From Streptomyces sp. NA04227 (GTDB taxonomy: Bacteria > Actinomycetota > Actinomycetes > Streptomycetales > Streptomycetaceae), in contig NZ_CP054918.1 in the NCBI RefSeq assembly GCF_013364195.1, forward strand, positions 6,747,001 through 6,811,000: DNA of 64,000 nt, given 5' to 3'. This document shows positions 28,539 through 45,811 of this stretch, piece by piece. Below the pieces are notes generated by a model. That model made no database searches and was not told the DNA's origin. It was given only the letters and a program-made list of their open reading frames with translations. Position numbers and translations under genes: made by a program. The first letter of the stretch is position 1. The number at the start of each line of letters is the position of its first letter.

Positions 28539-29891
28539 GTGAGCGTGACCATGGTGCGCACCGCGACACCTCGCACCCACAGCACCCCGGACGGGTCCGG
28601 CATCGCCGCCGTCCCCACCGTCGGTCCCTGCGTCGAGCGCCTGGCGGCCCGGCTGACCGGGGCCGACCCGGCACGCCGCGAGGTGGTGCTCGCCGAGTTC
28701 TGGGCGGAGGCGGCCCGGCGCGGCACGCCCCTCGTCGAGGAGATCGAGGGCGACCCCGAGCACCGTGTGGTGACCTTTCTGTGGCGCGGCCACCGGGCCA
28801 CCCGGCAGGTACTGCTGCTCGCCAACCGGCTGATGGACCGCGGGCAGTTGGCGCGCTCGCTGCTCAACCGGCTCTCGGACACCGAGGTCTGGTACCGCTC
28901 CTACCGGCTGCGTGCCGATCACCGCGGTTCCTACAAGATGGCCGCCGATCTGTCCCCCGGTGAACTCCCCACCGAACCGGGCAGGTTGCAGCAGCGGCTG
29001 CTCGCCCTGACCGCCCACGCCGCCGCCGACCCGCTCAACCTCCACCCCATGCCCAGCCGCTGGCGCGCCTCCGACACCTCGGTCTACGCGCTGCCCAAGG
29101 CCCCGCCCCAGCCCTGGGCGGCCCGCCGGGCGGGAGCCCCCCGGGGCGAGGTCGTGCGGCACCGGTTCACCAGTGCCGCGCTCGGCACGGACCGCGACGT
29201 GTGGGTGTACCTGCCGCCGTCGGCCGCACCCTCCGGGCTCCCCGTGCGCGAGCCCGCCGAACTGCCCGTACTGGTGCTGTGCGACGGGGACATGTGGTTC
29301 GGCAGGCTCGGCTTCCAGGACACGCTGGACGCCCTGATCGCGGACGGTGCCGTGCCCCCGCTCGCGGTGCTCGCCCCCGACGCGGTGGACGACGCAACCC
29401 GCTCCCGGGAACTGGGCGCACGCGAACCCCATGTCCGTTTCCTCGCCGACGAGTTGCTGCCCTGGGCGGCCGGACGCTGGCCGGTCACCACCGACCCGGT
29501 CCGTACCGTGGTCGCCGGGCAGGGCCTCGGGGCGATGACATCGTTGTACGCCGCGCTCCTGCGGCCCGATCGCTTCGGCCGGGTCCTCGCCCAGTCGTGC
29601 GCCCTGTGGTGGCGGCCGGGCCTGGCACCCGGCGTCGCGACGGCCGCGACGGGCACGGTGCCGTGGCTGGTGTCCCGGTTCGCGGAGGCCGAACCGAGGC
29701 CCGTCACCGTGCACTTGGACGTCGGCCTGCACGAAGGCGCCGTGGTCGAGGACACCCGCGCCCTGTACGCGGTGCTGCGTGAGCGCGGCCACGAGGTCTC
29801 GCTGGGCGAGTTCAACGGCGGCCACGACTACGCCTGTTGGCGCGGCGCACTCGCGGACGGGCTCGTACGCCTGCTCGGCACTCGCCCCTGA
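28539..29891 (+). CDS. Enterochelin esterase (Fes)-like protein lacking the catalytic serine
   Basis: 450-residue Fes-like protein. The N-terminal 190 residues fit the Fes N-terminal domain (PLVEEIEGDPEHRVVTFLWR, WYRSYRLRADHRGSYKM). The C-terminal half is the alpha/beta-hydrolase (RDVWVYLPPS, LVLCDGDMWF). In this family the nucleophile lies in AGQSFGG; here the segment reads VVAGQGLGAMTSLYAALLRP, with Gly329 (GGC, 29523-29525) instead of serine. The histidine region GGHDYACWRG (His429) is intact. So it is either inactive, ligand-binding only, or a one-base mutant (AGC to GGC). GTG 28539 or ATG 28551 could start it; neither has a good ribosome-binding site. It is under the iron box. Confidence 0.88.
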   Translation: MSVTMVRTATPRTHSTPDGSGIAAVPTVGPCVERLAARLTGADPARREVVLAEFWAEAARRGTPLVEEIEGDPEHRVVTFLWRGHRATRQVLLLANRLMDRGQLARSLLNRLSDTEVWYRSYRLRADHRGSYKMAADLSPGELPTEPGRLQQRLLALTAHAAADPLNLHPMPSRWRASDTSVYALPKAPPQPWAARRAGAPRGEVVRHRFTSAALGTDRDVWVYLPPSAAPSGLPVREPAELPVLVLCDGDMWFGRLGFQDTLDALIADGAVPPLAVLAPDAVDDATRSRELGAREPHVRFLADELLPWAAGRWPVTTDPVRTVVAGQGLGAMTSLYAALLRPDRFGRVLAQSCALWWRPGLAPGVATAATGTVPWLVSRFAEAEPRPVTVHLDVGLHEGAVVEDTRALYAVLRERGHEVSLGEFNGGHDYACWRGALADGLVRLLGTRP

Positions 29892-29995
29892 GACGACCGC
29901 CCCCGAGACGCCTGCCCCTGAGACGCCCGCCCGGCCCCGGCGCGTACGTCCCCGCGCAGTCCCCAAAACCCCAGTACCAGCAAGGAGTTGTCCCG

Positions 29996-31081
29996 ATGTC
30001 ACCCACCCGCCTGCCCGGCGCGGCGACCACCGGCCCCGCGGCGAACCGTGGCCCGCAGCACCCTCGTTCGCTCTCCCGGCGCGGCGTGCTGGCAGGCGCC
30101 GGTGCGCTCGCCGTCACCGCCCCGCTCACCGCCTGTGGCAGCGACGAGGACGAGGGTTCCTCGGACGGGAAGGGTGAACAGACGGGCGGCGCCTGGCAGT
30201 TCAAGGACGACCGGGGACGGCTGGTCCGCCTTCCCGAGCGTCCGGAGAACCTCGTCGCCTTCATCAGTACGGCGGCCGCGCTCTACGACTACGGCATCGA
30301 GTGCAAGGGCGTCTTCGGACCCAGCAGCCCGGTGCGCGGCAAGCCCAATCCCCAGGCGGGCAGGCTCCCGATGGAGAAACTGACCAGCCTCGGCGAGAGC
30401 TACGGGCAGTTCAACGTCGAGAAGTACGCGGCGCTCCGGCCGAACCTGCTCATCAGCAATATGTTCCCGCCGCCCGACCTGTGGTTCGTCCCCGAGGAGA
30501 GCCGCGAGAAGATCGAGTCGCTGGCGAAGACCGTGGGCATCAGCGTCGCCCGTACCTCTCTGCCGCAGCCGCTGCGCCGCACCGCGGAACTCGCCGAAAG
30601 CCTCGGCGCCGACCTCTCCGCCCCCGACGTCACCCGCGCCAAGGCGGACTTCGAGAAGGCGGCCGAGGCGGTCCGCACCGCGGCGCGCGACAACGGCGGC
30701 CTCAAGGTGCTCGCCATGACGGGTGACGACGAGCAGATGTACGTGGCGGTGCCCGACTCCTACTGCGACCTGCGGTACTTCAAGGAACTCGGGGTCGAGT
30801 TCGTCGAGGGCCGCAAGAGCGACGAGTGGGGCTTCTGGGAGTTCCTCAGCTGGGAGAACGCGGACAAGTACCACGCCGACCTGATCATCATCGACAACCG
30901 CTCCACCGCCCAGTCGCCGCAGGACCTGCGCCGTCATCCCACCTGGCGCGAGCTGCCCGCCGTCAAGGCCCGGCAGACCGTGCCGTGGGCCATGGAAGAG
31001 CGCTACAGCTACCTCGGCTACACGCCCGTACTCCAGTCCCTGGCCGAGGCGTTGCGGAACGCGCGCAGACTCAAGGCCTGA
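29996..31081 (+). CDS. Iron-siderophore ABC transporter substrate-binding lipoprotein
   Basis: 361-residue exported lipoprotein. The N-terminus has SLSRRGVLAGAGALAV, a twin-arginine motif, then the lipobox LTAC at about residues 43-46. The body is the two-lobed FecCD-partner binding fold (WQFKDDRGRLVRLPERPENLVAFIS, EKYAALRPNLLIS). AAGGAG lies 8 bases upstream of the ATG. It is 104 bp downstream of the esterase-like gene under the same iron box, so it likely binds a ferric siderophore. No permease or ATPase genes are next to it, so it must share a membrane complex encoded elsewhere. Confidence 0.92.
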   Translation: MSPTRLPGAATTGPAANRGPQHPRSLSRRGVLAGAGALAVTAPLTACGSDEDEGSSDGKGEQTGGAWQFKDDRGRLVRLPERPENLVAFISTAAALYDYGIECKGVFGPSSPVRGKPNPQAGRLPMEKLTSLGESYGQFNVEKYAALRPNLLISNMFPPPDLWFVPEESREKIESLAKTVGISVARTSLPQPLRRTAELAESLGADLSAPDVTRAKADFEKAAEAVRTAARDNGGLKVLAMTGDDEQMYVAVPDSYCDLRYFKELGVEFVEGRKSDEWGFWEFLSWENADKYHADLIIIDNRSTAQSPQDLRRHPTWRELPAVKARQTVPWAMEERYSYLGYTPVLQSLAEALRNARRLKA

Positions 31082-31118
31082 TGCCCCGATCGGGTTCGGG
31101 CGCGAGGTGCCGTCCTGT

Positions 31119-32447
31119 TCAGGACGACCTGGCGCCCGCCCCCGATTCCCGTCCCGGCGAGGGCGGCGCCTCCCCCGGGGACGGCGCCGCCCCGGAGGGC
31201 GCGGGCGCGGCCTGCTCACGCGGCAGCTCGCGCCGGTGACGTACGGGGGAGAGGAAGACCGGCAGGAAGGCCAGCGAAAGCAGGGCGCCGCCGACCCACA
31301 ACGTGACCTGGGCGGAGGCCAGTTCACCGATCAGGCCGGACAGCGCGGCGCCGATGGCGAGGGCCCCGGTGAGCAGGAAGCGGAAGGTGGCGTTCATCCG
31401 GCCGAGGAGCGCGTCCGGCGTCATACGCTGGCGCAGGCTCACCCCGAGGACGTTGTCCATGCCCGTCTTGAACAGTGTCAGCAGATAGCCCGCACCCGCG
31501 ACATAGAGCCACACTCCGCCGTCGACCAGCGGAACGAGCAGCCCCGCCGGAGCCATGCACAGCCCCGCCAGGCCGAGAGTGCGGCCGAACCCGAGCCGTG
31601 CGGAGACGGGCCGCGCGCATCGTGCGCCGAGCAGCAGCCCCAGCCCGCCACTCGCCCAGAACAGCCCCAACACGCCTGGGGACAGGCCGAGTTCGCGCAC
31701 GAACAGCAGCGGGAGCATGGTGTTGATGAGCTGGAGTCCCAGATTGGTGAGCGAGGCGGTGAGCGCCAGCGCCCGCAGCTCGGCGTTGCCGAGCACATGC
31801 CGCAGCCCCTCACGGATCTGGGCGCCGAGCCCGGCCGCCGCGCCCGTCGTCTTCGTGACGGGCGCCGGAACATGCCGGAGCGCGGTGAGCCGCAGGGCCG
31901 AGGCCAGATAGCCCACGGCCGTACAGGCGACGGCGACCGGCGCGGTGAGCAGTTGGACCACCCCACCACCGGCGCCCCGCCCCGCCACATTGCCCGCGGC
32001 CATCAGCGTCACCACGGCACTGTTGGCCCGTACCAGGCCGTCCCTGCCCACGAGTTGGGGCAGCACACTCTGCGAGGCGACATCGAAGAAGACCGTCGCG
32101 CACCCGTTGAGGAGCACCACCACGTACAGCTGCTCCAGCGTCAGCACGTCCAGCCACCAGGCCAGCGGCACCGAACAGAACAGCAGCGCACGGCCCAGAT
32201 CCGCCCCGATCAGCACACCGCGCTGGCGCATCCGGTCCACCCACGCGCCCGCGGGCAGCCCGATGAGCAGAAAGGCAAGGGTGCTCAGGGTGGCGAGCGC
32301 TCCCACCTGACCCGGACTCGCGTCCAGCTCGGCGACCGCGATGAGCGGAACGGCGACATGACCGACGTTGGTCGCCAGCTGGCTGAGCGCGGTCGCGGTG
32401 AACAGGGTGCGGAAGTCGGGTATCCGCCATGGGGAGTTGGGCTGCAT
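31119..32447 (-). CDS. MFS transporter (enterobactin-exporter EntS-like)
   Basis: 442-residue major facilitator protein with about 12 hydrophobic segments. It begins NSPWRIPDFRTLFTATALSQLATNVGHVAVPLIA, the usual first helix of the EntS/MFS_3 group. LLIGLPAGAWVDRMRQRGVLIGADLGRA is the loop 2-3 signature with DRxxRR-like charges. The last 45 residues are a Pro/Ala-rich tail. It converges with the iron-uptake genes, 37 bp between stops. A role in siderophore or drug export is plausible from family and neighbours only. Confidence 0.9.
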   Translation of the reverse strand: MQPNSPWRIPDFRTLFTATALSQLATNVGHVAVPLIAVAELDASPGQVGALATLSTLAFLLIGLPAGAWVDRMRQRGVLIGADLGRALLFCSVPLAWWLDVLTLEQLYVVVLLNGCATVFFDVASQSVLPQLVGRDGLVRANSAVVTLMAAGNVAGRGAGGGVVQLLTAPVAVACTAVGYLASALRLTALRHVPAPVTKTTGAAAGLGAQIREGLRHVLGNAELRALALTASLTNLGLQLINTMLPLLFVRELGLSPGVLGLFWASGGLGLLLGARCARPVSARLGFGRTLGLAGLCMAPAGLLVPLVDGGVWLYVAGAGYLLTLFKTGMDNVLGVSLRQRMTPDALLGRMNATFRFLLTGALAIGAALSGLIGELASAQVTLWVGGALLSLAFLPVFLSPVRHRRELPREQAAPAPSGAAPSPGEAPPSPGRESGAGARSS

Positions 32448-32927: not shown

Positions 32928-33263
32928 GTGAACACCGATCAGGTCTGTCGACTCATCAGCCGACTTTCCGATTCACCGACAGCCGCCGAGGCATACAAGG
33001 CCGTCGGCGCCTCCACCCGATTCGTCATCGACAGCTCTCGGGAGATCGTTCTCAACGAGGACGGCAGTGTCCGGACGACGACGGACGAAGCCGCCCCCGA
33101 CCTCACCGTCCGCATCTCGGGCGAAGACGCGGCCGCGATCATCGCGGGCGGTCTGTCCGTGATCCGGAGCATCACCTCCGGCCGGGTGGCGGCCGAGGGG
33201 CCGATCTTCCAGTCGATCGGCGTGGTCCGGTCGCTCAGCCAGCTCAGCAACGAGGAGGTCTGA
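32928..33263 (+). CDS. SCP2-like sterol-carrier-domain protein
   Basis: 111-residue protein covering one SCP2-type lipid-binding domain: VDSTRFVIDSS-like early strand (TRFVIDSSREIVLNEDGS), APDLTVRISGEDAAAIIAGG, and ITSGRVAAEGPIFQSIGVVRSL, with the typical GRVxxEG turn. It would form a small hydrophobic cavity for acyl chains or other lipids. It opens a five-gene unit, 3 bp ahead of the acyl-CoA dehydrogenase gene, which suggests a carrier or presentation role for the acyl substrate. GTG start after AAAAGGGG. Confidence 0.75.
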   Translation: MNTDQVCRLISRLSDSPTAAEAYKAVGASTRFVIDSSREIVLNEDGSVRTTTDEAAPDLTVRISGEDAAAIIAGGLSVIRSITSGRVAAEGPIFQSIGVVRSLSQLSNEEV

Positions 33264-33266
33264 ACC

Positions 33267-34472
33267 GTGCATACCCTCTGTCTGCCCGATCTGACGACGC
33301 TCGAAGGCCTCGACCCGACCGCGCACAAAGCGGTGGTCCAGCTCGGTGAGTTCGCACGCGACCGCGTCGCACCGACCGCCCGCCGCCGCGACAGCGCCCC
33401 CCTCGGCACCGTGGACTGGGACCTCGTCGCGGAGGCCCAGGCACTCGGCGGCCTGCGGATGGGCATTCCGGAAACGCTCGGCGGGCTGGGCCTCGGAAAC
33501 CTGGCCCTCGGCCACATCCTGGAGGAGTTCGCCGCAGCGGACCCGGGCTTCGCGCTCATCCTCGGTGCGACGGGCCTGTTCCACACCCCGCTGATCCTCA
33601 GCGGCGACAAGCGTCTCAGTGAGACCTACCTCGTCCCCTTCACCGGTGACACGCCTCTCCTCGGCAGCAACGCGGTCGCGGAAGAGCTCAACGGGATGGA
33701 CGTAGTGCGTCGCGAACACGCCGAATTCGCCACGGACTTCACGGTCGCGCGTGATGCGGGGGACCACTTCGTCGTGCGCGGCAAGAAGAAATACATCACG
33801 AACGCCCCGGTGTCCCGCTTCGCCACCGTGATGGCGAACGTCGAGGGAAACCCGGGCTCGACCGGCATGACCTGCTTCGTCATCGACCTCGAATGGGACG
33901 GGGTCGGCCGCGGCGAAACGCACGACAAGGTCGGCTATCGTGCCGCCCCCGCCGGCGAACTGGTCTTCAACGGTGTCCGTGTGCCCAAGGAGAACGTCAT
34001 CGGCGACGTCCTCGGCGGCTGGGACCTGAACATCACGCAGGGAAATCTCTGCCGCATCACCTGTGCCGCGATCTCGACGGGCATCGCCCGCCATGCACTG
34101 CAGCACGCCCTGCAGTGGTCCACCGAGCGCCGGCAGACGGGCAAGACGCTCTATCAGCACCAGATGTCGGCGCGAAAGCTCGCGGACATGGCCGCGCGGG
34201 TCGCTTCTGCCCGGGCGCTGTGGACCGAGGCGGCACGCATGGCGGACGTCACCCTCCCGGTCCCCGAACTCGAGCCCGCACTGGCCAAGTTGGTCGCCGA
34301 CGAGGCTTCGGTCTTCAACGCGAACGCGGCCGCCTCGCTGCTCGGTGCCCAGGGGTTCCAGCGGAACGACGACATGGAGCGCATCGTGCGCGACTCGCTC
34401 GGGCCGCGGATCTACGAGGGTTCGCCCGAGGCGCTGGCCATGACGATCACGGAACAGATCGCGCGCGGCTGA
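33267..34472 (+). CDS. Acyl-CoA dehydrogenase-like flavoenzyme
   Basis: 401-residue protein with the full acyl-CoA dehydrogenase fold. The N-terminal helical domain has DWDLVAEAQALGGLRMGIPETLGGLGLGNLALGHILEEFAAAD. The middle beta domain has GKKKYITNAPVSRFATVMANV. The C-terminal helical domain ends NANAAASLLGAQGFQRNDDMERIVRDSLGPRIYEGSPEALAMTI. FAD binding is expected. The middle domain lacks the common ALTEP start, reading LLGSNAVAEELNGMDV, so the substrate may be unusual. It sits 3 bp after the SCP2 gene and one base before the next ATG. A role in alpha,beta-desaturation of a carrier-bound acyl group is likely. Confidence 0.88.
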   Translation: MHTLCLPDLTTLEGLDPTAHKAVVQLGEFARDRVAPTARRRDSAPLGTVDWDLVAEAQALGGLRMGIPETLGGLGLGNLALGHILEEFAAADPGFALILGATGLFHTPLILSGDKRLSETYLVPFTGDTPLLGSNAVAEELNGMDVVRREHAEFATDFTVARDAGDHFVVRGKKKYITNAPVSRFATVMANVEGNPGSTGMTCFVIDLEWDGVGRGETHDKVGYRAAPAGELVFNGVRVPKENVIGDVLGGWDLNITQGNLCRITCAAISTGIARHALQHALQWSTERRQTGKTLYQHQMSARKLADMAARVASARALWTEAARMADVTLPVPELEPALAKLVADEASVFNANAAASLLGAQGFQRNDDMERIVRDSLGPRIYEGSPEALAMTITEQIARG

Positions 34473-34473
34473 C

Positions 34474-35310
34474 ATGAGCACTCACTCACTCGACGAGACA
34501 GCGGAACAGGCCTCCGCCTTCTCCTTCGCCAAGTTGGACGCGAGCCTGACCGCGCCTCCGGTGTTCCTGTCGGCCGGGTGCGACGGCACGCTCACCCTCG
34601 TGGCGCGGGGCGACCACATACCGGCCCGGTACCGCAGGGCCATGCACGCGTTCCGGTTCTCCCAGTACTGGCGACTGGGATTCCTGGACGCACACCAGGT
34701 CGACATCGATGTCTACTGCGACGAGCTCGTGGGATATCCGCCGGACCGGGAGTTCCACACGATCGTCCTGGACCGGCATTCGGGGCGCGCCGCCGCGTAC
34801 GTGTACCTGGCGATTCCCGACCCCGACTCCGCAGGCGCTCCCTTCGCCCTGGAGAAGGAGTACGACCTCACCGTGGGCGAGACCATCGGCAAGGGCCTTG
34901 AGCGGGCGCGGGTCTGGGAGGCGAAACGGCTGGTGCGCCGGGTCGGGATGCCCTGGTCGAGCATGGCCCGGAATTCTCCGTGGTGGGCCATGCTCGGAAT
35001 GTCGCAGGCCATCGGGGCTCTGCACAAGCGCGGGCATCTGGACGCGTTCGTCGCGGACGGCGCACCGGACGGCAGCCCCAGGATCTTCGAGCTCCTCGGC
35101 TTCGATGTGCACCGCCTGGACGTGAAGCCCAGGGTCACCAATGTGGACGGCCGGTACGGCCCCATGTGGCGACAGCGCACCGTTCCCGTTCCGTACATCT
35201 GCGAGAACAGGGAGGGCCAGGGCGAACATCTGCGCGGAGTCGAGGAATTCCTGCAAGGCAATCAGGGACTGTCGGTTCGGGAAACGCTGGCGGCGTGGAG
35301 GCAGGCATGA
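34474..35310 (+). CDS. GNAT/LuxI-fold-like protein of unknown function
   Basis: 278-residue protein that I do not recognise as a named family. Its pattern resembles LuxI/FeeM-type acyl synthases, a branch of the GNAT fold. There is an N-terminal region with Arg54/Arg55, Phe60, Phe62 and Trp66, then VDIDVYCDEL (Asp77, Asp79, Asp83) where LuxI has its acidic EXDxxD segment. ARVWEAKRLVRRVG follows, with Glu149-x-x-Arg152, like the ExxR of LuxI proteins. Then come a helix and PRIFELLGFDVHRLD, as at the end of GNAT folds. It could join an acyl group to an amine. The evidence is pattern-level only. Its stop overlaps the ThiF start by ATGA. Confidence 0.55.
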   Translation: MSTHSLDETAEQASAFSFAKLDASLTAPPVFLSAGCDGTLTLVARGDHIPARYRRAMHAFRFSQYWRLGFLDAHQVDIDVYCDELVGYPPDREFHTIVLDRHSGRAAAYVYLAIPDPDSAGAPFALEKEYDLTVGETIGKGLERARVWEAKRLVRRVGMPWSSMARNSPWWAMLGMSQAIGALHKRGHLDAFVADGAPDGSPRIFELLGFDVHRLDVKPRVTNVDGRYGPMWRQRTVPVPYICENREGQGEHLRGVEEFLQGNQGLSVRETLAAWRQA

Positions 35311-36293
35311 CGGACATCGAAACTGTCGACGAGGCCCGAAGTCTGGAGGCCGAGCCCTACTACCGGCATCTGATCCGCCGCAACAAGGGGCTTGTCCACC
35401 CCCATGTGCAGCAGCGGATCCGCGAGGCCAAGGTCCTCGTCGCCGGTTGTGGCTCCGTCGGCGGTGCGGCGATCCAGCCCCTGGCCCGTATCGGGTTCAA
35501 GGACTTCCGGTTCGCGGACTCGGGCAGCTACGAGCTGAACAACCTGAACCGGCAACTGGCGTTCCTGGACGACCTGGGCAGGAACAAGGCCGAGGTCGGC
35601 GCCGACGCGGTGCATCGCATCAACCCGCACGCCCAGGTGGTGGTGTTCCCCGAGGGGGTCACGGCCGAGAACGCGCGGGCCCTGGTCCAGGACGTGGACG
35701 TCATCGTCGACGGGGTGGACGTCACCACCCGGTCGGGGCTCTCCGCGAAGCTGGCCCTGCACGAGGCCGCCCTGCTCCAGCGGAAGCCGCTCATCACCGG
35801 CTGGGACCTGGCCGGGGTGATGTGCGCGCAGTACTTTGACTACCGGGAGCTCCAGCGGATCTTCGACGGGGCGATCGAACCGTCGGAGCTGGACTCGCTC
35901 GACATCTGGGAGGCGATCTTCCGTATCGCCCCCATGCGGCACATCCCCACCTCCATGCTGTTCGAGTTGGCGTCCCACATCGCCGACCCCGAGTACAGCG
36001 TCCCCCAACTACCGGAGGCCGCCTGGCAGTTCGGGTCACTGGCCTGCCATATGGCGGTGCGCTCGATCACCGGGAAGAGGATCCCCCGCAATGTCCCGGT
36101 GAACGTCCACCGGTGCACCAGCCGGCTCCCCGAACGCATGCTGCAGAGCATGGGAAAGCCGTTCGGTTTCGCCAAACTCGTGCAGACGATGGGCTGGTCG
36201 CGGGCGGGGGAGTCGTTCATACCCGCGCATTCGTTTCTCCGGCCGACAAGTTCGAGGAAGGCGTTTGGGAATGTCGGGCAAGACTCTCGGTGA
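35307..36293 (+). CDS. ThiF/MoeB/HesA-family E1-like adenylating enzyme
   Basis: 328-residue E1-like protein. The nucleotide-binding motif is VLVAGCGSVGGAAIQPLARIG (residues about 43-63), followed by DSGSYELNNLNRQLAF, the conserved NxNRQ segment (Asn81, Arg82, Gln83) that contacts ATP. The DVIVDGVDVTTRSG acid stretch completes the adenylation site. The Zn-binding CxxC pairs of MoeB/ThiF are absent. ATGA overlap with the previous gene. Such proteins adenylate a carboxylate, either a ubiquitin-like carrier tail or a small acid. No small carrier gene is adjacent apart from the SCP2-like protein, so a small-molecule substrate is possible. Confidence 0.85.
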   Translation: MTDIETVDEARSLEAEPYYRHLIRRNKGLVHPHVQQRIREAKVLVAGCGSVGGAAIQPLARIGFKDFRFADSGSYELNNLNRQLAFLDDLGRNKAEVGADAVHRINPHAQVVVFPEGVTAENARALVQDVDVIVDGVDVTTRSGLSAKLALHEAALLQRKPLITGWDLAGVMCAQYFDYRELQRIFDGAIEPSELDSLDIWEAIFRIAPMRHIPTSMLFELASHIADPEYSVPQLPEAAWQFGSLACHMAVRSITGKRIPRNVPVNVHRCTSRLPERMLQSMGKPFGFAKLVQTMGWSRAGESFIPAHSFLRPTSSRKAFGNVGQDSR

Positions 36294-37308
36294 CATAAGC
36301 CGCGAACTCTCGTACTCGGACATCAGGGACGTCGTCGAACTGACCGGGCCCGAGCGTGAGCGGGTGCGCGGCGAGTGTCTGGCCGTCGCCGACCGTTTCG
36401 CGGTGCACGACCTGCACGACGACGCGCTGATCTACGCGGCGGAAGACCTCGCCCGTCGCCTTCCCAGCCGGGTGGTACAGAGCATCCGGGGAATCCGTGA
36501 CCGCAGTACGGTCGACGGGGTGCTCGTCATCGAGGGCTTGCCCGTCGACCAGGGGGTGGCGACCCCGCACGGCCCCCGCGACGAACCCGGCTGGACGACC
36601 GTGCCGGTGGCCTCCCTGGTGCAGCTGTCGATCATGACCATGCTCGGCGCCCCGATCAGCTACGCGGAGGAGAAGTCCGGCAGGCTCATCCAGGACGTCT
36701 ATCCGAAGGCCGGTTTCGAGGAGCGGCAGGAGAACTCCGGCTCGGTGCTGCTCGAACTGCACACCGAGGACGGGTTCTTGCTGAGTCCTCCGGACTATGT
36801 GTCGCTGCTGTGCATGCGGCCCGATCACGAAGGCCGTGCCGCCACGGTCGGATGCGGGATCCGCAGGGTGCTCAGCACTCTGCCCGCGGAGATCCGGACG
36901 GTGTTGCGCCAGCCGCGGTTCAAGCTGTTCTTCAGCAGCTCCTTCACCGTGGACAACGCGACACGGTGGACGCATCCGGTCCCCGTGCTCAGGGGCCCGG
37001 AGGACGATCCCGACCTCTGCGTCGACCTGCACGGAATGATCGGTGTGGACGAGACGGCGGTCCTCGCGCTGGACCGGCTCAGAAGGGCACTGGAGGACAA
37101 CCTTCTGGGAGGGGTTCTGCAGGCGGGCTCGCTGCTGATCGTCGACAACAACGCGGCCGTGCACGGCAGGACGGGGTTCGTCCCCCGCTACGACGGGTCC
37201 GACCGGTGGCTCAGGCGCTGCTTCGTCACCAAGGATCTGCGCCGTGTCAGGGGCGACATCGTCCAAGGGCGCATGCTGCGCAGCCGGGAGCGTTCGTCAC
37301 ACGGGTGA
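36271..37308 (+). CDS. TauD/TfdA-like (AsnO/VioC/clavaminate-synthase type) dioxygenase
   Basis: 345-residue Fe(II)/2-oxoglutarate dioxygenase resembling the amino-acid hydroxylases AsnO and VioC. The facial triad is visible as LLELHTEDGF (His164, Glu166; HxE rather than HxD, as in clavaminate synthase) and NNAAVHGRTGF (His298). The 2-oxoglutarate-binding arginine is in GSDRWLRRCF. GAGGAAGG lies 9 bases before the ATG at 36271. It overlaps the end of the ThiF gene by 23 bases. It probably hydroxylates or desaturates an amino-acid-like substrate made by this cluster. A perfect hairpin 55 bp downstream ends the operon. Confidence 0.88.
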   Translation: MSGKTLGDISRELSYSDIRDVVELTGPERERVRGECLAVADRFAVHDLHDDALIYAAEDLARRLPSRVVQSIRGIRDRSTVDGVLVIEGLPVDQGVATPHGPRDEPGWTTVPVASLVQLSIMTMLGAPISYAEEKSGRLIQDVYPKAGFEERQENSGSVLLELHTEDGFLLSPPDYVSLLCMRPDHEGRAATVGCGIRRVLSTLPAEIRTVLRQPRFKLFFSSSFTVDNATRWTHPVPVLRGPEDDPDLCVDLHGMIGVDETAVLALDRLRRALEDNLLGGVLQAGSLLIVDNNAAVHGRTGFVPRYDGSDRWLRRCFVTKDLRRVRGDIVQGRMLRSRERSSHG

Positions 37309-37363
37309 CGGAGGATCGGCCCGGGCCGGTTTCGGACCGGTTCGGGCCGTCCTCCCTCCACCG

Positions 37364-37398
37364 GTGCAGGAGCCGTCGACCGCGGACGGCTCCTGCAC
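37364..37398 (+). terminator. Terminator closing the five-gene operon
   Basis: GTGCAGGAGCCGTC and GACGGCTCCTGCAC pair over 14 bp with loop GACCGCG, 55 bp after the dioxygenase stop. It marks the end of the unit 32928-37308. Confidence 0.88.
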
Positions 37399-37457
37399 TC
37401 GTGTGGGGCTCAACGCCTCGCGGAGCAGGGCCCGTTGTGCTCGATCGGCAGGCCGGG

Positions 37458-37499
37458 CCAGACCCCGCGACCCCCGGCGAGATCCAAACGAGAGGCCCT
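37458..37499 (+). repeat. 42-bp repeat, solo end related to the element at 47350
   Basis: The segment from CCAGACCCCGCGACCCCC through AGATCCAAACGAGAGG to CCCT matches the reverse complement of 47350-47391 at 38 of 42 positions. It is one end of the MITE-like element described at 47350, with no second end visible on its left. The final bases overlap the stop codon of the marR-type gene, so that TAG is built partly from the repeat. It lies in inverted orientation to the 47350 copy, with 9.85 kb between. Confidence 0.8.
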
Positions 37500-37932
37500 A
37501 CGCCTTTCCGATCGCCTGCTTGTCCTTGGCATGTGACGTGCCGCCCGGACCGCCCGGCATGTCCTGCTCCTCGAGGATGCCGAGCAGGGTGTCGGCCGAC
37601 GCGTGCAGCGCTCGACGGCCCTTGCGCGTAATGGCGATCTGGTAGGCGCGGCCGTCGGAGTCGGCGCGGTGCCGCTCGACCATCCCGCGCTCCTCCAGCT
37701 GGCTGACGAGCCGGGAGACGCGTGGCTGCGACCTGTCGATGTCCTTGCAGAGCTGTGTCAGAGGGGTCCTCCCGCGCTGGGACGCCAGGAGATAGAGGAC
37801 TTCATAACCGGTGATGCAGAGCGAGTGGCGCAGGGTGAGTTCGTTCTCGATGCGGGCGTTCAGCTGCTCGATCGGCCTGACAATCGCCTTCCAGCGGCCG
37901 AGCGCCTCATACGCCTCATCCTGTGACTCCAT
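37498..37932 (-). CDS. MarR-family transcriptional regulator
   Basis: 144-residue regulator. The winged helix is CITGYEVLYLLASQRGRTPLTQLCKDI, then SQPRVSRLVSQLEERGMVERHRADSDGRAYQIAITRKGRRAL. AAGGAGG lies 6-7 bases before the ATG at 37932, which rules out the longer in-frame starts. It is divergent from the MFS gene at 38091 and most likely represses it; a palindrome at 38028 is a candidate operator. Its stop codon falls in the terminal bases of the repeat at 37458-37499. Confidence 0.92.
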   Translation of the reverse strand: MESQDEAYEALGRWKAIVRPIEQLNARIENELTLRHSLCITGYEVLYLLASQRGRTPLTQLCKDIDRSQPRVSRLVSQLEERGMVERHRADSDGRAYQIAITRKGRRALHASADTLLGILEEQDMPGGPGGTSHAKDKQAIGKA

Positions 37933-38027
37933 GGCGACCTCCTTACGCGCTGGGTGTGCCGCGCATTGACGCCAAGGATACCGCCAACTCGCCCCGGTAC
38001 AGGTGGCCCCATGAGTAGTATGCTCGG

Positions 38028-38043
38028 GCATGGAGTTCCATGC
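38028..38043. promoter_or_regulatory. Candidate MarR operator
   Basis: GCATGGA, GT, TCCATGC: a 16-bp inverted repeat with perfect 7-bp arms in the spacer between the marR-type gene and the MFS gene, 47 bp before the MFS start codon. Its size and position fit a MarR dimer site. Confidence 0.6.
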
Positions 38044-38090
38044 GCGGGTATGTAGTTGGCTTCGTGGTGCGGATGTGAATGGAGAGTCTG

Positions 38091-39566
38091 ATGTCGGTGG
38101 AACCTGAGGAAGACACCCGGTCGCTCACACAGGACGCGCCCGACCGTGTACCGGATCAGCCGTGGAGCGCGCTGGCGGTCGTCGGCCTCGCGCAGATGCT
38201 GGTCATGCTCGACTCGACCGTGGTCAACGTGGCGTTACCGTCGATCGGCGACGACATCGACGCGGGCGCCAAGGCCTTGCAGTGGACGATCAGCGGATAC
38301 GTCCTCACCTACGGTTCCCTGCTGCTCTTCGGAGGGCGCCTCGCCGATGTCCGAGGCCGGCGCGCGATGTTCCTTCTCGGCGTCGCGATCTTCTCCCTCG
38401 CCTCCTTCGTCGCGGGCCTGGCCGGGAACGGCGCCGTCCTTGTCATGTCGCGCGTGACGCAGGGCGTCGGTACCGCGGTCCTCTCGGCGGCGGCCCTGTC
38501 GATCATCATCGCGACGTACCGGTCGGAACGTCAGATGAAGATCGCACTCACCGCGTGGAGCGGACTCGGTGTCATCGGGGCGGGCATCGGCGTCATCGCG
38601 GGCGGTGTCATCGTGGAGTACGTCTCCTGGCGCTGGGTGTTCCTGATCAACCTCCCGATCGGAGCCGCCCTCACCCTGGCCGCGATCCGTGTGGTCGCGC
38701 CGATGGCGCGGCAGTCCGGCGCCCCCGCCCTGTCGCTGCGCCTGCCCACCGCGGCCCTGGTGACGATCGCTCTGAGCTGTGTCTCCTACTCCTTCATCGG
38801 TATGCAGGAAGGGTTCGACGACCTGACCTCCTGGATCTTCCTGGCCGCCGGGATCGTGCTCCTCGCCGTCGTGATCCGTTTCGAACGTCGCGCCGAGGAC
38901 CCCCTGTTGCCGCTGTTCCTGATGAAGATCAAGACCTACGGCCTGGCCTGCGCGGGCATGGTGATGGCCGCGACGCTGCTGCTCGGCTCCATCTACCTGG
39001 GGAGCAACTACTTCCAGCGGGCGGCCGAACTCTCGCCGCTGGAGACGGGCTTCGCCCTGCTCCCGCTGTGTCTGGGGTCGCTGGTCTCCGCCTTCGGGAT
39101 CCCGCATCTGGCAGGCAGGATCGGCATGCCGAAGATCTATCTGTCGGGTGTCGTGGTCCAGCTCGTGTGCAGTGTTGTACTCGCCGCCCTCGCCTGGAGT
39201 GCCGACGAGTCGGTCCCCGTCGCCGTCGTGATCGTGGTGCTCGGCGTCTTCGGCCTCGGACTGCCGTCGATGTTCGTACCGCTCTACACCTTCGGGGCCG
39301 CCGAGATCCCCGCAGAGCACAGCGGAACCGGATCCGGGCTGCTCAACACCTTCAACGAGGCGGGCGCGGGCATGGGTCTCGCCATCGTCGCGCCCCTCGC
39401 CGCGTACATCGGCAGCAGTGAGCACGACGACGGAACAGCACGGACCGTCGCCGAGTCCCACGGCATCGGGGTGGCCTGGACCGCTCTCGCCGTGTGCTCC
39501 CTCGTCGCGGCGGTCATCGCCTCCGCGATCGTCCGCGCGACCCGCGTCCAGAGCCGTGGGGCGTGA
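38091..39566 (+). CDS. MFS drug efflux transporter (DHA2, 14-helix type)
   Basis: 491-residue exporter of the EmrB/QacA type. The first helix is LAVVGLAQMLVMLDSTVVNVALPSIG, with the D-x-T-V-x-x-V-A-L-P motif C-like signature of DHA2 proteins. LLLFGGRLADVRGRRAMF is motif A. About 14 hydrophobic segments follow. ATG 38091 has GGAG 6 bases upstream; an ATG at 38079 is the alternative. Codon 49 is TTA (38235-38237), so expression may depend on bldA. Divergent MarR control suggests efflux of a toxic compound, possibly a product of the neighbouring cluster. Confidence 0.93.
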   Translation: MSVEPEEDTRSLTQDAPDRVPDQPWSALAVVGLAQMLVMLDSTVVNVALPSIGDDIDAGAKALQWTISGYVLTYGSLLLFGGRLADVRGRRAMFLLGVAIFSLASFVAGLAGNGAVLVMSRVTQGVGTAVLSAAALSIIIATYRSERQMKIALTAWSGLGVIGAGIGVIAGGVIVEYVSWRWVFLINLPIGAALTLAAIRVVAPMARQSGAPALSLRLPTAALVTIALSCVSYSFIGMQEGFDDLTSWIFLAAGIVLLAVVIRFERRAEDPLLPLFLMKIKTYGLACAGMVMAATLLLGSIYLGSNYFQRAAELSPLETGFALLPLCLGSLVSAFGIPHLAGRIGMPKIYLSGVVVQLVCSVVLAALAWSADESVPVAVVIVVLGVFGLGLPSMFVPLYTFGAAEIPAEHSGTGSGLLNTFNEAGAGMGLAIVAPLAAYIGSSEHDDGTARTVAESHGIGVAWTALAVCSLVAAVIASAIVRATRVQSRGA

Positions 39567-39706
39567 GGCGTGACCGACTTCTTCCAGCAGGTCAAACCGC
39601 GTCTGGTGAGCGAGTCCGTGATCACGGGAGTTGGGTACAGGGGGCCCGGCCGGTCGCGCAGGGTGTGTCTTACGTGCGCGACCGGGTTCCCTCGGCGAAG
39701 AACCCT

Positions 39707-40075
39707 TCAGTCGCATCTGTCGTTGATCCACTTCCACAGCGGATAGAGCTGCTCGGCAAGACTGCGACCGGATTCCGTGAGTCCGTATTGGACGCCGGGT
39801 GGTCGTGTGTCGAGAACTTCACGGCCTATCAGCCCCTCTTCCTCGAGAAGTTTGAGAGTCAGTGTCAACGTCTTGGTGTTCGTACACTGCATCTCTTTCT
39901 GGATCTCGGAGAATCTGAGCTGGCCGGGGAAGAGCGTGAGGAGAATGCTGACCGACCACTTTTTGGCCAGTACGGCGAACAATTTGTGTACGTAGGCCCA
40001 CTCGCCGCCGGAGGCCGCTTCTGCCGCGATAGCCATCTGCTTCTTCTTGATGTCCACGTGCGGTTTGATGTCCAC
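39707..40075 (-). CDS. HxlR-family transcriptional regulator
   Basis: 122-residue winged-helix regulator of the HxlR group: VLAKKWSVSILLTLFPGQLRFSEIQKEMQ, then NTKTLTLTLKLLEEEGLIGREV and PPGVQYGLTESGRSL, ending LYPLWKWINDR. The start is uncertain because the first codons lie in an 18-bp tandem duplication. GTG 40075 has GAGG about 15 bases upstream, and GTG 40057 lies in the second copy. Members often respond to aldehydes or redox signals. It converges with the MFS gene and has no divergent partner within 600 bp. Confidence 0.88.
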   Translation of the reverse strand: MDIKPHVDIKKKQMAIAAEAASGGEWAYVHKLFAVLAKKWSVSILLTLFPGQLRFSEIQKEMQCTNTKTLTLTLKLLEEEGLIGREVLDTRPPGVQYGLTESGRSLAEQLYPLWKWINDRCD

Positions 40076-40082
40076 GTGCGGT
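40047..40082 (-). repeat. Tandem 18-bp direct duplication at the HxlR start
   Basis: TTGATGTCCACGTGCGGT occurs twice in tandem with no mismatch. On the coding (minus) strand each copy offers a CAC-GTG, so the gene has two equivalent GTG starts and a repeated Pro-His-Val-Asp-Ile-Lys. This looks like a recent slippage or duplication event. Confidence 0.85.
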
Positions 40083-40692
40083 AATCCTCGGATCTCGTGG
40101 CGGCCGGCAGCCGGCCCGCCCGCGCGTGAGGGCATGCGGGCGGACTTCGGCTTCGCGGGCGCCGGTGGATTGTGGAGGTCGGGGCGCGGGCGGGACCGGA
40201 TCCGGGCATGCGTCCGGGTCCTCGTCGGCGCCCTCGTCTCGGCTGCGGCCGTATCCGCGGATGTGGTGTCAGCCGGGCCCCGGAACGGAAAGGTGAAGGG
40301 GCGACAGCGATCTGTCCGCTGCCGCGGTCACCTGTCCTGCCGGTGCCGTCGGCCCTGCCGCACGGCACGACCGCGCCGCACCGTGCCGACCACAGGCAAC
40401 CATGCGCGTCCCGCGCACACTGAATGAAGGCCTGGACAACGGCCGATCCCCCCACCCGTTAGAGATCAACTGTGCTCCCACGGAAGCGCATTGAGGCTTC
40501 CGTGGCGCCTGATACAGCGTAAAGTTGCTGAAGTCACCGACCAAGCACTTCTCAGCCACCTTGCGAGAATCTCCCCACGATCAATTTGTGAATCCGGGGT
40601 CGGTCTGTGCCGGTGGCCCCCCGCAATTCCAGCCGGACGACTTTGTCGATTTCCCGGTACGGGCGGTCAAGGAGGCGAGGTGCGCCAGGCGT
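40083..40692. other. About 610-bp gene-free stretch between HxlR and ketosynthase
   Basis: No supported gene on either strand; the frames present have chance-like composition. A hairpin at 40477-40504 (CCACGGAAGC pairing with GCTTCCGTGG, 8-base loop) may terminate the leftward ketosynthase transcript. GC content drops around 40540-40600. The HxlR promoter should lie at the left end. Confidence 0.5.
40477..40504. terminator. Hairpin, possible terminator downstream of ketosynthase
   Basis: Perfect 10-bp stem CCACGGAAGC/GCTTCCGTGG with loop GCATTGAG, about 190 bp beyond the ketosynthase stop on the minus strand. The distance makes the assignment tentative. Confidence 0.45.
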
Positions 40693-42021
40693 TCAGGAAC
40701 AGCGCCGCAATGCCAGTACCGCATTGTGTCCCCCGAACCCGAACGAACTGCTCAGCGCGACATCCGCAGGCGGCAGCGGACGCGGGGCCCCGGTGACGAT
40801 GTCCAGGCCGAGCCCCTCCTCCGGGTCGTCGCAGCCGAGGGTGGGCGGGATCAGGGCCTCGCTGAGGGTCAGTGCGGTGACGATGGCCTCCACACCTCCG
40901 GCGGCGCCCTGCATGTGGCCGAAGTGGCCCTTGCTGGCGGTCACCGGGACGGGCCCGTAGGAGGTCTGGCCGTCGAGGACTTCGCACATCGCGAGGGCTT
41001 CGGCGCGGTCGCCCTCGACGGTCGCCGTCGCGTGGGCGTTCACGTGCGCGACCGAGGCGGCGGGGGCGCCCGCGTCGGCCAGGGCGTGGCGCAGGGCGAG
41101 CGCGATCCCGGCGCCGGTCGCGTCGGGGGCCGCGATGTGGTGGGCGTCCGCGGAGAGTCCCCAGCCGGCGGCCTCGCAGTAGACGCGCGCACCGCGGGCG
41201 CGGGCGTGCTCCTCCGACTCCAGGACCAGCACTCCGGCGCCCTCCCCGCAGACGAAGCCGTCGCGGTTGCGGTCGAAGGGGCGGGAGGCGCTCGCCGGGT
41301 CGTCGTTGCGGGTGGACAGGGCCCGCATGGCGGCGAAGGCGGCCATGACCACCGGGGTGATGACGGCCTCGGCGCCGCCGGCCAGGACGACGTCGAGGTG
41401 TCCGTGGCGGATCCGGTCGATGGCCTGGCCGATGGCCTCGGTGCCGGAGGCGCAGGCGCTGGTCACGGTGCGGGCCTCGCCGGTGATGTGCAGATCGAGG
41501 GAGATCTGGGAGGCGGCCTGCGAGGGCACGGTCATCGGATTGGTCAGCGGCGAGACCCCGCGCGGGCCCTTCGCGCGCAGCGTGCGGTCGCTGGCCACCA
41601 TGACCGGTGTGCCGCCGATGATGGTGCCCATGCTGACGCCGACCCGGTCCGGTGCCAGCCCGCTCGGCACCGTCCCCGCCGGGTCGAAACCGGCGTCCTG
41701 CCACGCCTCTTGGGCGGCAAGCACCGCGAACTGCGCGGCCCGGTTCATCCGCCGCGCCCGCGAGCGCGGCAGCCGCGACGCCGGGTCGGGTGCGGTGGCG
41801 GCGATCCGTACGGGCTGCTCGGCGAACTCCTCGTCGAGCAGGGTGTGCACTCCGCAGTGGCCCTTGAGCATGCCCTGCCAGAGCTCGGCGACCGTCGCGC
41901 CCAGCGGGGTCATGGCGCCGAGACCGGTGATCACGACCCTGCGCGGGGGATGCGCCGCGTATCCGGGGGGAGTGTCCGGCAGGGGCCGTACCTTGCTGCG
42001 CGCGTTCTCGGCTTCCGGCAT
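40693..42021 (-). CDS. Stand-alone beta-ketoacyl synthase (FabF/KAS II-like)
   Basis: 442-residue ketosynthase. After a 28-residue lead comes VVITGLGAMTPLG, the usual first strand. The nucleophile is in TVTSACASGTEAIG. The two active-site histidines are in VNAHATATVEGD and in TASKGHFGHMQGAAGG, where the family lysine is also present. GFVCGEGAGVLVLE matches KAS II. It thus keeps the Cys-His-His triad and should condense acyl-ACP with malonyl-ACP. No ACP, ketoreductase or acyltransferase is nearby, so it may serve a modified fatty acid or a scattered pathway. GAGG precedes the ATG. It follows the tetR-type gene on the same strand by 152 bp. Confidence 0.92.
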   Translation of the reverse strand: MPEAENARSKVRPLPDTPPGYAAHPPRRVVITGLGAMTPLGATVAELWQGMLKGHCGVHTLLDEEFAEQPVRIAATAPDPASRLPRSRARRMNRAAQFAVLAAQEAWQDAGFDPAGTVPSGLAPDRVGVSMGTIIGGTPVMVASDRTLRAKGPRGVSPLTNPMTVPSQAASQISLDLHITGEARTVTSACASGTEAIGQAIDRIRHGHLDVVLAGGAEAVITPVVMAAFAAMRALSTRNDDPASASRPFDRNRDGFVCGEGAGVLVLESEEHARARGARVYCEAAGWGLSADAHHIAAPDATGAGIALALRHALADAGAPAASVAHVNAHATATVEGDRAEALAMCEVLDGQTSYGPVPVTASKGHFGHMQGAAGGVEAIVTALTLSEALIPPTLGCDDPEEGLGLDIVTGAPRPLPPADVALSSSFGFGGHNAVLALRRCS

Positions 42022-42173
42022 CTCACTGCACCTCGCGGTCGTCGCTCGGGGTGAAGGTTGCCCGGTATCGGCATGATGTCACCGTTTGTCGATGCTACTG
42101 CGAGCGGCGTGGACCGGCTCTTCGTGGGCCGGGAGCGAGGTTCTGTGCCAGGTGAGCGGGGTGGGGGGCCGGG

Positions 42174-42767
42174 TCAGTCGACGGGGAAACCGGCGACCCG
42201 TGCGGTGATCCGGGCGATACGGCGGGCGGACTCCTCCGGGGAGTCCACCGGGAGCACGATGTGGCTCACGGTGAGTCGCACGATCGTCTCCACCGCGAGG
42301 CTGCGCCACTGGGCCTCGACCTCGGGCCAGTATTCGAGCGCATAGGCCTCGAGCATCGCGGTGGCGGTGTTGAAGACCGGCTCGGGCCGGGTCGTCAGAT
42401 AGGAGAGCAGTTCCTCGTCGCCGCCCCTGGCGTAGGTGAGGATCGCCTTGATCAGGGCGTTGTCCGCGGCCTCGCGGAGGGTGAATCCGACGCCGGCCGT
42501 GGCGGCCGCCTGGAGGTCGTTGGCGTGGGGGCGCAGTTCGCGCTCGATGCCCACCAGGAAGCGCTCGGCCTCGCGCTCCACCAGTGCGCGGCCGATGGCT
42601 TCCTTGGATCCGAACTCGTTGTAGAGGGTCTGCCGGCTGATGCCCGCCTCGCGTGCGATGCCCGCAAGCTTGAGACCCGCCCAGCCCTGGGCGGTCACGA
42701 GTGCGTACGCCGCGTCCAACACCCGCTCTCGGAGGAGGGATCGGACGTTCTCCCGAAAGGTAGTCAT
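42174..42767 (-). CDS. TetR-family regulator, divergent from alkB
   Basis: 197-residue TetR regulator. The helix-turn-helix is RVLDAAYALVTAQGWAGLKLAGIAREAGISRQTLYNEFGSKEAIGRALV (residues about 15-63). The C-terminal ligand domain is helical with no close recall. It sits divergently from the alkane hydroxylase operon, 112 bp between starts, and probably represses it until an alkane or fatty acid is bound. An inverted repeat overlapping the alkB transcript start region is a candidate site. Confidence 0.92.
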   Translation of the reverse strand: MTTFRENVRSLLRERVLDAAYALVTAQGWAGLKLAGIAREAGISRQTLYNEFGSKEAIGRALVEREAERFLVGIERELRPHANDLQAAATAGVGFTLREAADNALIKAILTYARGGDEELLSYLTTRPEPVFNTATAMLEAYALEYWPEVEAQWRSLAVETIVRLTVSHIVLPVDSPEESARRIARITARVAGFPVD

Positions 42768-42806
42768 CGTGTTCCCACCCTATCGATCGGAGCCTTGTCA
42801 AAAGTA

Positions 42807-42862
42807 TTGACGGTCTTCTCGACTGTGCCTACCTTCTGGACACTCCCCCTGTGAAGTGTCCA
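42807..42862 (+). promoter_or_regulatory. alkB promoter with overlapping inverted-repeat operator
   Basis: TTGACG (42807-42812), a 17-bp spacer and TACCTT (42830-42835) form a good vegetative-type promoter. Directly after it TGGACACT (42837-42844) and AGTGTCCA (42855-42862) make a perfect 8-bp inverted repeat with a 10-bp gap, covering the expected transcription start. This is where a TetR dimer could block alkB. Confidence 0.6.
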
Positions 42863-42879
42863 ATGAAGGTGAGGCGGAC

Positions 42880-44216: not shown

Positions 44217-44223
44217 GGACCAG

Positions 44224-45721: not shown

Positions 45722-45729
45722 CCTGCAAA

Positions 45730-45770: not shown

Positions 45771-45811
45771 CGCCTCTCCGTCCGCTCAACTCCCTTACTG
45801 TGTCCGGCCGT

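What the first reader, a model, noticed from the sequence alone, without database searches (positions are those of the whole stretch)
32928..37308. Compact five-gene operon of unrecognised function: SCP2-like, acyl-CoA dehydrogenase, GNAT/LuxI-like, ThiF-type E1, AsnO/VioC-type dioxygenase
The genes are spaced by 3 bp, 1 bp, an ATGA overlap and a 23-bp overlap, and end in a perfect terminator, so they act together. The set combines fatty-acyl desaturation, a lipid-binding domain, a possible N-acyl transfer, carboxylate adenylation and amino-acid-type hydroxylation, with no PKS or NRPS. That suggests a small biosynthetic pathway for a modified acyl-amino-acid-like metabolite, with the MarR-controlled exporter next door as a possible resistance gene. 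I know of no described cluster with this exact composition.
Basis: partly seen in the sequence, partly recalled or inferred. Interest (0 to 1): 0.75.

Follow-up and report, generated by a model that had tools for sequence, protein, structure and literature searches.

The report
Fatty-acyl amino acid tailoring gene cluster
Five tightly packed genes in a soil bacterium most likely hydroxylate an amino acid, attach it to a fatty acid and then activate its acid group so that it can be flipped or unsaturated; the same four-gene core is found in dozens of other bacterial genomes, and I know of only one such cluster with a known product.

Summary
The operon is real: SCP2-like, acyl-CoA dehydrogenase (ACAD), GNAT, ThiF and TauD/AsnO-like genes with the stated spacing. 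The same five genes in the same order lie in 12 of 80 loci found through ThiF, and in 7 more in another order. The core SCP2-ACAD-GNAT-ThiF occurs in 48 of 80. This core equals litI-J-L-M of the lipothrenin cluster by gene order, length and annotation. There, litL loss abolishes product and litM loss blocks L-Thr to D-allo-Thr conversion. The GNAT model ranks AHL synthases first and FeeM close behind, tied with one ordinary GNAT. The ThiF profile matches ThiF-nitroreductase fusions over its full length. The TauD protein keeps AsnO's key residues, so it probably acts on a free amino acid before acylation. Best reading: a relative of the N-acyl-oxazolone pathways in which an ACAD stands where the nitroreductase-type oxidase normally does. 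Product, ACAD substrate and oxazolone formation are untested.

The parts
32928..33263 (+). SCP2-like lipid-binding protein, 111 aa (GTG start); counterpart of LitI
33267..34472 (+). acyl-CoA dehydrogenase-family flavoprotein, 401 aa; catalytic Glu384 kept; counterpart of LitJ
   Evidence: Pfam, PDB short-chain ACAD best E 2e-43, Glu in 49 of 51 aligned family rows
34474..35310 (+). GNAT, probable N-acyl amino acid synthase, 278 aa; counterpart of LitL
35307..36293 (+). ThiF/E1-like adenylating enzyme, 328 aa, probable N-acyl amino acid cyclase/epimerase; counterpart of LitM
   Evidence: Pfam ThiF 7.2e-33; R82, K94, D135, D138 invariant in 52 rows, no CxxC in any; full-length match with ThiF-nitroreductase fusions
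36271..37308 (+). [quoted passage not shown] TTG 36265 possible)
   Evidence: PDB best AsnO 2og5 E 2.4e-49; active-site residues
37310..37399 (+). two stable hairpins at the 3' end of the operon, no T-tract
   Evidence: fold; no T-tailed terminator called here
37498..38031 (-). MarR-family regulator (ORF to 38031; a later start near 37932 fits the codon pattern better)
   Evidence: Pfam MarR_2/MarR; homologue with the block in 11 of 12 same-order loci
38079..39566 (+). MFS exporter, 495 aa
   Evidence: Pfam MFS_1; homologue with the block in 11 of 12 same-order loci
39707..40135 (-). HxlR-family regulator
   Evidence: Pfam HxlR 1.6e-21; homologue in 7 of 12 same-order loci, four of them weak (37-47 bits); between the MFS gene and SCP2 in L003-L005

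Best explanation
The cluster (about 32928-40135) makes and exports a lipid-tethered, modified amino acid. Proposed order: (1) the AsnO-like dioxygenase beta-hydroxylates a free L-amino acid, perhaps asparagine or another small polar one [inferred from active-site residues]; (2) the FeeM/LuxI-like GNAT N-acylates it with a fatty acyl-CoA or acyl-ACP [inferred from fold; litL deletion fits]; (3) the SCP2-like protein holds the acyl chain [inferred from fold]; (4) the ThiF enzyme adenylates the alpha-carboxylate of the N-acyl amino acid and closes it to a 5(4H)-oxazolone, whose acidic alpha-H allows epimerisation and, with a beta-OH, loss of water [inferred; related ThiF enzymes do the cyclisation, and LitM is needed for L-Thr to D-allo-Thr]; (5) the ACAD-family flavoenzyme does a redox step next to this activated carbonyl, in the place of the nitroreductase-type oxidase of the known oxazolone pathways [weakest step]; (6) the MFS protein exports the product under MarR/HxlR control [inferred from synteny]. 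Shown here: gene content, conservation, predicted folds, catalytic residues. Shown in papers for relatives: effects of deleting litL and litM, ThiF cyclisation. Not shown for this cluster: any chemistry.
For: Five genes in the same order in 12 of 80 loci (one search scores 11 of the 12 because SCP2 of L005 falls under its cut-off). Core of four in 48 of 80 ThiF-found loci. Of 16 non-own places found with the GNAT alignment, 14 carry the contiguous core; ten of the 16 are contigs already in the first set, and of the six new places five carry the core and one, a marginal hit, does not. Six loci (L032, L039, L042, L043, L045, L047) share most of the lit layout around this core (Table 5). Gene deletions in lit. 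GNAT fold, SCP2 fold. The family's ThiF profile, built without them, matches 7 ThiF-nitroreductase fusions over nearly its whole length (positions 17-307 of 310, 232-262 bits) but 7 remoter ThiF proteins only in the nucleotide-binding half (28-167, 77-86 bits) (3 of the 7 fusions checked by Pfam). L064 carries the same GNAT and ThiF families with a nitroreductase. AsnO residues E125, N146, D241, R305 and the Fe ligands identical in 20 of 20 TauD rows. ThiF cyclisation: PMC10404671, PMC12856293.
Confidence: 0.6

Rival explanations
1. The ACAD works on the fatty acyl chain (alpha,beta-desaturation or chain processing) and the product is an N-(enoyl) or chain-modified amino acid; ThiF only epimerises or activates the amino acid.
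For: The family's ordinary reaction is on acyl thioesters (Pfam and PDB relatives). The ACAD travels with a lipid-binding SCP2 protein in 50 of 80 loci. Four same-order loci (L007, L008, L011, L014) carry ACP, KS II and KS III genes behind the block (Pfam on L007 only). Loss of litJ is tolerated, as if the host's fatty-acid enzymes could stand in.
Against: Lipothrenins have a saturated chain. The ACAD is the best conserved member of the core (mean identity 59% against 36% for the GNAT over 39 loci) although amino acid and chain presumably vary. In L064 an amino-acid-type flavin oxidase sits beside the GNAT and ThiF.
Confidence: 0.35
2. ThiF makes an acyl-adenylate for ligation, thiocarboxylate or amide formation (MccB, PaaA or MoeB-like logic) rather than an oxazolone.
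For: Adenylation is the shared step of the superfamily (established knowledge); MoeB, ThiF, PaaA and MccB are all sequence matches, and NCBIfam ThiF/MoeB models score above the Rv1355c model.
Against: No CxxC motif in any of 52 rows; no ubiquitin-like or sulphur-carrier family among the 20 window proteins scanned with Pfam (small ORFs not scanned); the C-terminal half of the profile is shared with ThiF-nitroreductase fusions and not with remoter ThiF proteins; LitM loss leaves the amide product but unepimerised.
Confidence: 0.15
3. The fatty acyl group is a temporary handle: the amino acid is acylated, tailored, then freed by an amidase and exported as an antimetabolite amino acid.
For: 13 of 48 full-core loci carry an amidase-family gene within 7 kb on the same strand (Pfam Amidase on one member), and all 7 loci of the other five-gene order do.
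Against: The amidase profile has no match at 1e-3 in the 64-kb window; the lit product keeps its acyl chain. The amidase may have another role.
Confidence: 0.3
4. The operon is catabolic or housekeeping lipid metabolism.
For: ACAD and SCP2 families are common in lipid degradation (established knowledge).
Against: Rare and patchy: GNAT family in 16 of 392 genomes of the genus and 1 of 396 of the phylum, own genome counted in both; bound to an exporter and regulators; parallels a known natural-product cluster.
Confidence: 0.05

Closest known systems
Lipothrenin (lit) cluster of Streptomyces aureus LU18118 (PMC10616846; outline and parts 1-4 of 6 read)
   Same: litI (124 aa, 'hypothetical'), litJ (ACAD, 421), litL (311, 'hypothetical'), litM (ThiF, 297) are the SCP2-ACAD-GNAT-ThiF core in the same order; deletion results are given for litJ, litL and litM
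   Different: lit also has fatty-acyl-AMP ligase, ACP, diiron N-oxygenase, GMC oxidoreductase and others, and litK inside the core; its gene table lists no dioxygenase; its amino acid is threonine, which already bears a beta-OH
N-acyl-oxazolone pathways TyzABC, TrzAS and OxzAB (PMC10404671 parts 1-2 of 6 and passages; PMC12856293 parts 1-2 of 7 and passages)
   Same: N-acyltransferase (TyzA said to resemble FeeM and AHL synthases) + ThiF-type cyclase + flavin enzyme in neighbouring genes
   Different: their flavin enzyme is a nitroreductase-superfamily oxidase, here an ACAD; 'acyl-CoA dehydrogenase' occurs in neither main text and 'SCP2' not in PMC12856293
Stieleriacine, thalassotalic and kyonggic acid clusters (PMC12479983, passages only)
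   Same: N-acyl amino acid synthase + ThiF + nitroreductase, linked by its authors to N-acyl dehydrotyrosines
   Different: nitroreductase instead of ACAD; aromatic amino acid; methyltransferases in Stieleria
AsnO, asparagine beta-hydroxylase (PDB 2og5-2og7)
   Same: Fe triad, alpha-amine Glu, carboxylate Asn and Arg, Asp241 equivalents
   Different: lid motif differs; AsnO serves an NRPS lipopeptide (recalled)

Membership tests
Lipothrenin-type core | SCP2-like, ACAD, GNAT and ThiF genes adjacent, in this order | tested here: met
   lit order from Table 5
Lipothrenin-type core | full lit complement (FAAL, ACP, AurF-like N-oxygenase, DUF4873, GMC oxidoreductase) | tested here: not met
   none among the 20 window proteins scanned with Pfam around the operon; present in L045. 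Hence not a lipothrenin cluster
Lipothrenin-type core | direct sequence match to LitI-LitM (ON169987) | not testable with these tools
   record not held; matched by gene order, length and annotation only
N-acyl-oxazolone pathway (Oxz/Tyz/Trz) | N-acyltransferase of the AHL synthase/FeeM branch of the GNAT fold | tested here: inconclusive
N-acyl-oxazolone pathway (Oxz/Tyz/Trz) | ThiF-type protein with the ATP-binding residues | tested here: met
   R82, K94 and D138 invariant in 52 rows; they match MoeB R73, K86 and D130 through the aligned strings
N-acyl-oxazolone pathway (Oxz/Tyz/Trz) | nitroreductase-superfamily flavin oxidase | tested here: not met
   no match at 1e-3 in the 64-kb window to a profile of the fusions' C-terminal halves, none among 20 proteins scanned with Pfam; an ACAD sits in the operon
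N-acyl-oxazolone pathway (Oxz/Tyz/Trz) | oxazolone product | not testable with these tools
   no chemistry available
AsnO-type dioxygenase | HxE...H iron triad and 2-oxoglutarate Arg | tested here: met
   20 of 20 rows; residue numbers partly recalled
AsnO-type dioxygenase | Glu for alpha-NH2, Asn and Arg for alpha-COO- | tested here: met
   20 of 20 rows; roles, where Asn146 is named; the link of the paper's positions P2 and P19 to E125 and R305 is recalled
AsnO-type dioxygenase | AsnO lid/side-chain sub-pocket (PPS..D) | tested here: inconclusive
   Asp241 kept, PPSF replaced by (S/A)(S/T)SF
MoeB/ThiF sulphur-carrier E1 | zinc CxxC motifs (recalled as MoeB/ThiF feature) | tested here: not met
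   0 of 52 rows with CxxC
MoeB/ThiF sulphur-carrier E1 | ubiquitin-like or sulphur-carrier partner gene | tested here: inconclusive
   none among 20 window proteins scanned with Pfam; small ORFs were not scanned
Acyl-CoA dehydrogenase | three ACAD domains and catalytic Glu | tested here: met
   real substrate not known
SCP2 domain | SCP2 fold | tested here: met

The most novel reading that the evidence does not exclude
A second, independent solution to oxazolone chemistry: the ThiF enzyme turns the N-acyl amino acid into an oxazolone that takes the place of the usual CoA thioester, and an acyl-CoA dehydrogenase has been recruited to oxidise (or reduce) Calpha-Cbeta of this thioester-free ring. 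The fatty chain, held by an SCP2 carrier, serves as a handle on which a beta-hydroxylated amino acid is inverted or unsaturated, and in amidase-bearing relatives it is cut off again.
Probability: 0.25. Interest if true: 0.8.

Novelty: new variant of a known kind. Interest (0 to 1): 0.55.

Why it matters
It links a published but unexplained result (a ThiF protein acting as epimerase, and an essential 'hypothetical' LitL) to the biochemistry of N-acyl-oxazolone pathways. LitL-type proteins become testable N-acyl amino acid synthases and LitM-type proteins testable oxazolone cyclases. It also describes a gene module seen in dozens of actinobacterial genomes, with several accessory gene sets and one product known to me, and so points to unexplored lipo-amino acids and possibly to an ACAD that works without a thioester.

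Tried and rejected
A single-sequence scan of genome contigs with the GNAT found no relative, and the single-sequence protein search found only 6 proteins, one of them the window's own. That rarity is partly an effect of the method: the 50-row alignment finds 15 further genomes among 392, one of them marginal. Vinyl-azoxy pathways (azodyrecin) were considered because of AurF-like genes in relatives and dropped once the lipothrenin paper turned up. The KS gene at 40693-42021 was considered as part of the cluster. At strict cut-offs (1e-120 and 1e-80) no genome of 41 besides the own had relatives of this KS and of the upstream MFS (31119-32447) on one contig, and its similarity to the KS of L007, L008, L011 and L014 is only 217-232 bits, so I leave it out; this also failed to show an empty site. 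The ThiF tree (quick method) has long branches and one misplaced remote row (L077), so I use it only for the closest neighbours of the window. The proteins L076-L082 were labelled MoeB-like by me and not annotated further. ACAD mean identities may include one unrelated ACAD row of L022. The DNA pattern scan was of no use. SCP2 members of the same-order Streptomyces loci can lack a Pfam hit (L014).
Full report
Observation. The five ORFs, their strand and their spacing are as described: gaps of 3 bp and 1 bp, an ATGA overlap and a 23-bp overlap with ATG 36271 as the TauD start. Pfam gives SCP2 at its cut-off, ACAD domains, no family for the GNAT, ThiF, and TauD; MarR, MFS and HxlR genes follow. 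NCBIfam lists no model above its cut-off for any of the five. Behind the operon lie two strong hairpins; the scan found no T-tailed terminator there, so 'perfect terminator' is overstated.

Conservation. ThiF homologues (alignment A2) were used to fetch 80 loci (the best 80 of 121) from one-genome-per-species data. Scored with profiles of the four core families plus TauD and amidase, 48 of the 80 have SCP2, ACAD, GNAT and ThiF within 7 kb on one strand; 18 of these 48 also have TauD, 13 an amidase, 9 both. 39 of the 48 have the exact run SCP2-ACAD-GNAT-ThiF; L003 has it too but its ACAD lies in two overlapping frames, and the other eight are seven loci of the second order below and L051. Of the remaining 32 loci, 18 had ThiF only, 7 had ThiF below my cut-off, and 7 had partial sets: SCP2+ACAD+ThiF 2, GNAT+ThiF 2, and one each of ACAD+GNAT+ThiF+TauD, ACAD+GNAT+ThiF and ACAD+ThiF. 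Two partial loci have an explanation: L005 does have an SCP2 match of 68 bits by phmmer, and L054 begins in the middle of a weak GNAT match. Twelve loci (L003-L014) carry the window's five genes in the same order, with MarR and MFS homologues in 11 of 12 and HxlR in 7 of 12. Seven more (L019, L031, L036, L037, L038, L065, L067) carry TauD and ThiF ahead of SCP2-ACAD-GNAT, followed by an amidase-family gene.

Second search key. The set above was selected through ThiF, so I searched 392 genomes of the genus with the GNAT alignment (A3, itself made mostly from those loci). 16 of 392 genomes matched, the own genome included, at 17 places. I fetched all 16 non-own places: 14 have the contiguous SCP2-ACAD-GNAT-ThiF core; L097 has its ThiF about 6 kb away; L098, the marginal hit at E 3.9e-4, has nothing. 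Of the six new places (L088, L089, L092, L095, L096, L098) five have the contiguous core and the sixth is the marginal hit. In 396 genomes drawn from the phylum only the own genome matched. The core is therefore rare and patchy, and its members travel together. The window copy is closest to Pseudonocardiaceae and Streptosporangium copies (ThiF 69-73% identity) and only 49-52% to the nine same-order Streptomyces copies. 35 of 36 same-genus genomes had no GNAT match and one had a 27% match. This suggests horizontal transfer.

What is known. The lipothrenin paper (PMC10616846; outline and parts 1-4 of 6 read) describes litI-litM between a fatty-acid activation set and a diiron N-oxygenase. Loci L032, L039, L042, L043, L045 and L047 share most of that layout around the core, and Pfam of L045 gives MFS, AMP ligase, ribonucleotide-reductase-like protein, ACP, GDSL lipase, GMC oxidoreductase, AurF, DUF4873, dienelactone hydrolase and TetR, matching Table 5. 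In that table LitI and LitL are 'hypothetical'. Deleting litL abolished lipothrenins, deleting litM left only the L-Thr form, and deleting litJ had minor effects. The authors propose a dehydration route for epimerisation and call a role of LitL in amide formation a vague hypothesis. The lit sequence itself was not available, so this match rests on order, length and annotation.

The dioxygenase. With AsnO numbering (chain number minus 24), E125, N146, H155, E157, D241, H287, R301 and R305 are identical in all 20 TauD rows, whereas clavaminate synthase and an arginine hydroxylase differ at 125 and 146; a lysine 3-hydroxylase shares the Glu but has Ser at 146. Passages of PMC6224419 assign a Glu of AsnO to the substrate alpha-NH2, and Asn146 and a conserved Arg to its carboxylate; that these are E125 and R305 is recalled. 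An N-acylated substrate could not make the same amine contact, so hydroxylation should come first. The lid motif differs from AsnO and the best NCBIfam model is an enduracididine hydroxylase, below cut-off, so asparagine is a guess. Threonine already has a beta-OH, which may be why lit has no such gene.

The ACAD. Its catalytic Glu is kept in 49 of 51 rows; the exceptions are L069, whose ThiF is split over two frames, and a second ACAD of L022 away from the core. It is the best conserved core protein (mean identity 59%, ThiF 50%, SCP2 41%, GNAT 36%, over 39 loci). By analogy with nitroreductase-type oxidases in oxazolone operons it may act on Calpha-Cbeta, and one locus (L064) has the GNAT and ThiF families with a nitroreductase and no ACAD match in the 6.7 kb held; its GNAT is remote (164 bits; hhalign probability 63%). 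No nitroreductase or amidase profile match lies in the 64-kb window. Against an amino-acid role, litJ is nearly dispensable, so action on the acyl chain remains a serious rival.

Verdict. The novelty claim has to be cut back: four of five families, in order, are in a described cluster, and the chemistry has a described analogue. What appears new within my searches (ten searches of the open-access library) is the recognition of the SCP2-ACAD-GNAT-ThiF module as an ACAD-bearing relative of the oxazolone pathways, its spread, and the five-gene variant with an AsnO-like hydroxylase.

Noticed in passing
window 28539-32447: Enterochelin-esterase-like gene (+), periplasmic-binding-protein gene (+) and an MFS gene (-) directly upstream look like the edge of a siderophore cluster, separate from this operon.
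   Followed up: no
window 40693-46501: FabF-like KS (-), fatty acid desaturase (+), a small ORF, a ferredoxin reductase-like gene (+) and a phosphopantetheinyl transferase (-) follow downstream; relatives of the KS were found in other genomes of the genus.
   Followed up: partly
L064:189-5313: ThiF, GNAT of this family fused to a cyclic-nucleotide-binding domain, a nitroreductase and an MFS gene in one row: possible bridge between the ACAD-type and nitroreductase-type systems, and a hint of cAMP control.
   Followed up: partly
L027:8353-11637: SCP2-ACAD-ThiF followed by a PF12261 protein where the GNAT is missing; a possible replacement acyltransferase.
   Followed up: no
L026, L030, L033-L035, L040, L041, L044, L046: A further group of loci carries the core next to a large f130 gene; the one member scanned (in L014) is an MMPL-type transporter. 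Product unknown to me.
   Followed up: no
L020, L021, L022, L025, L048: Core flanked by IclR, SpoIIE-type and FGGY-kinase genes on one side and MFS and LuxR-type genes on the other (Pfam on L020 only): another accessory set with no product known to me.
   Followed up: no
L003:7962-9171, L067:10192-12486, L069:9698-10917: Core genes (ACAD in L003; ThiF and ACAD in L067; ThiF in L069) appear as pieces in two or more frames, by frameshift or sequencing error.
   Followed up: no
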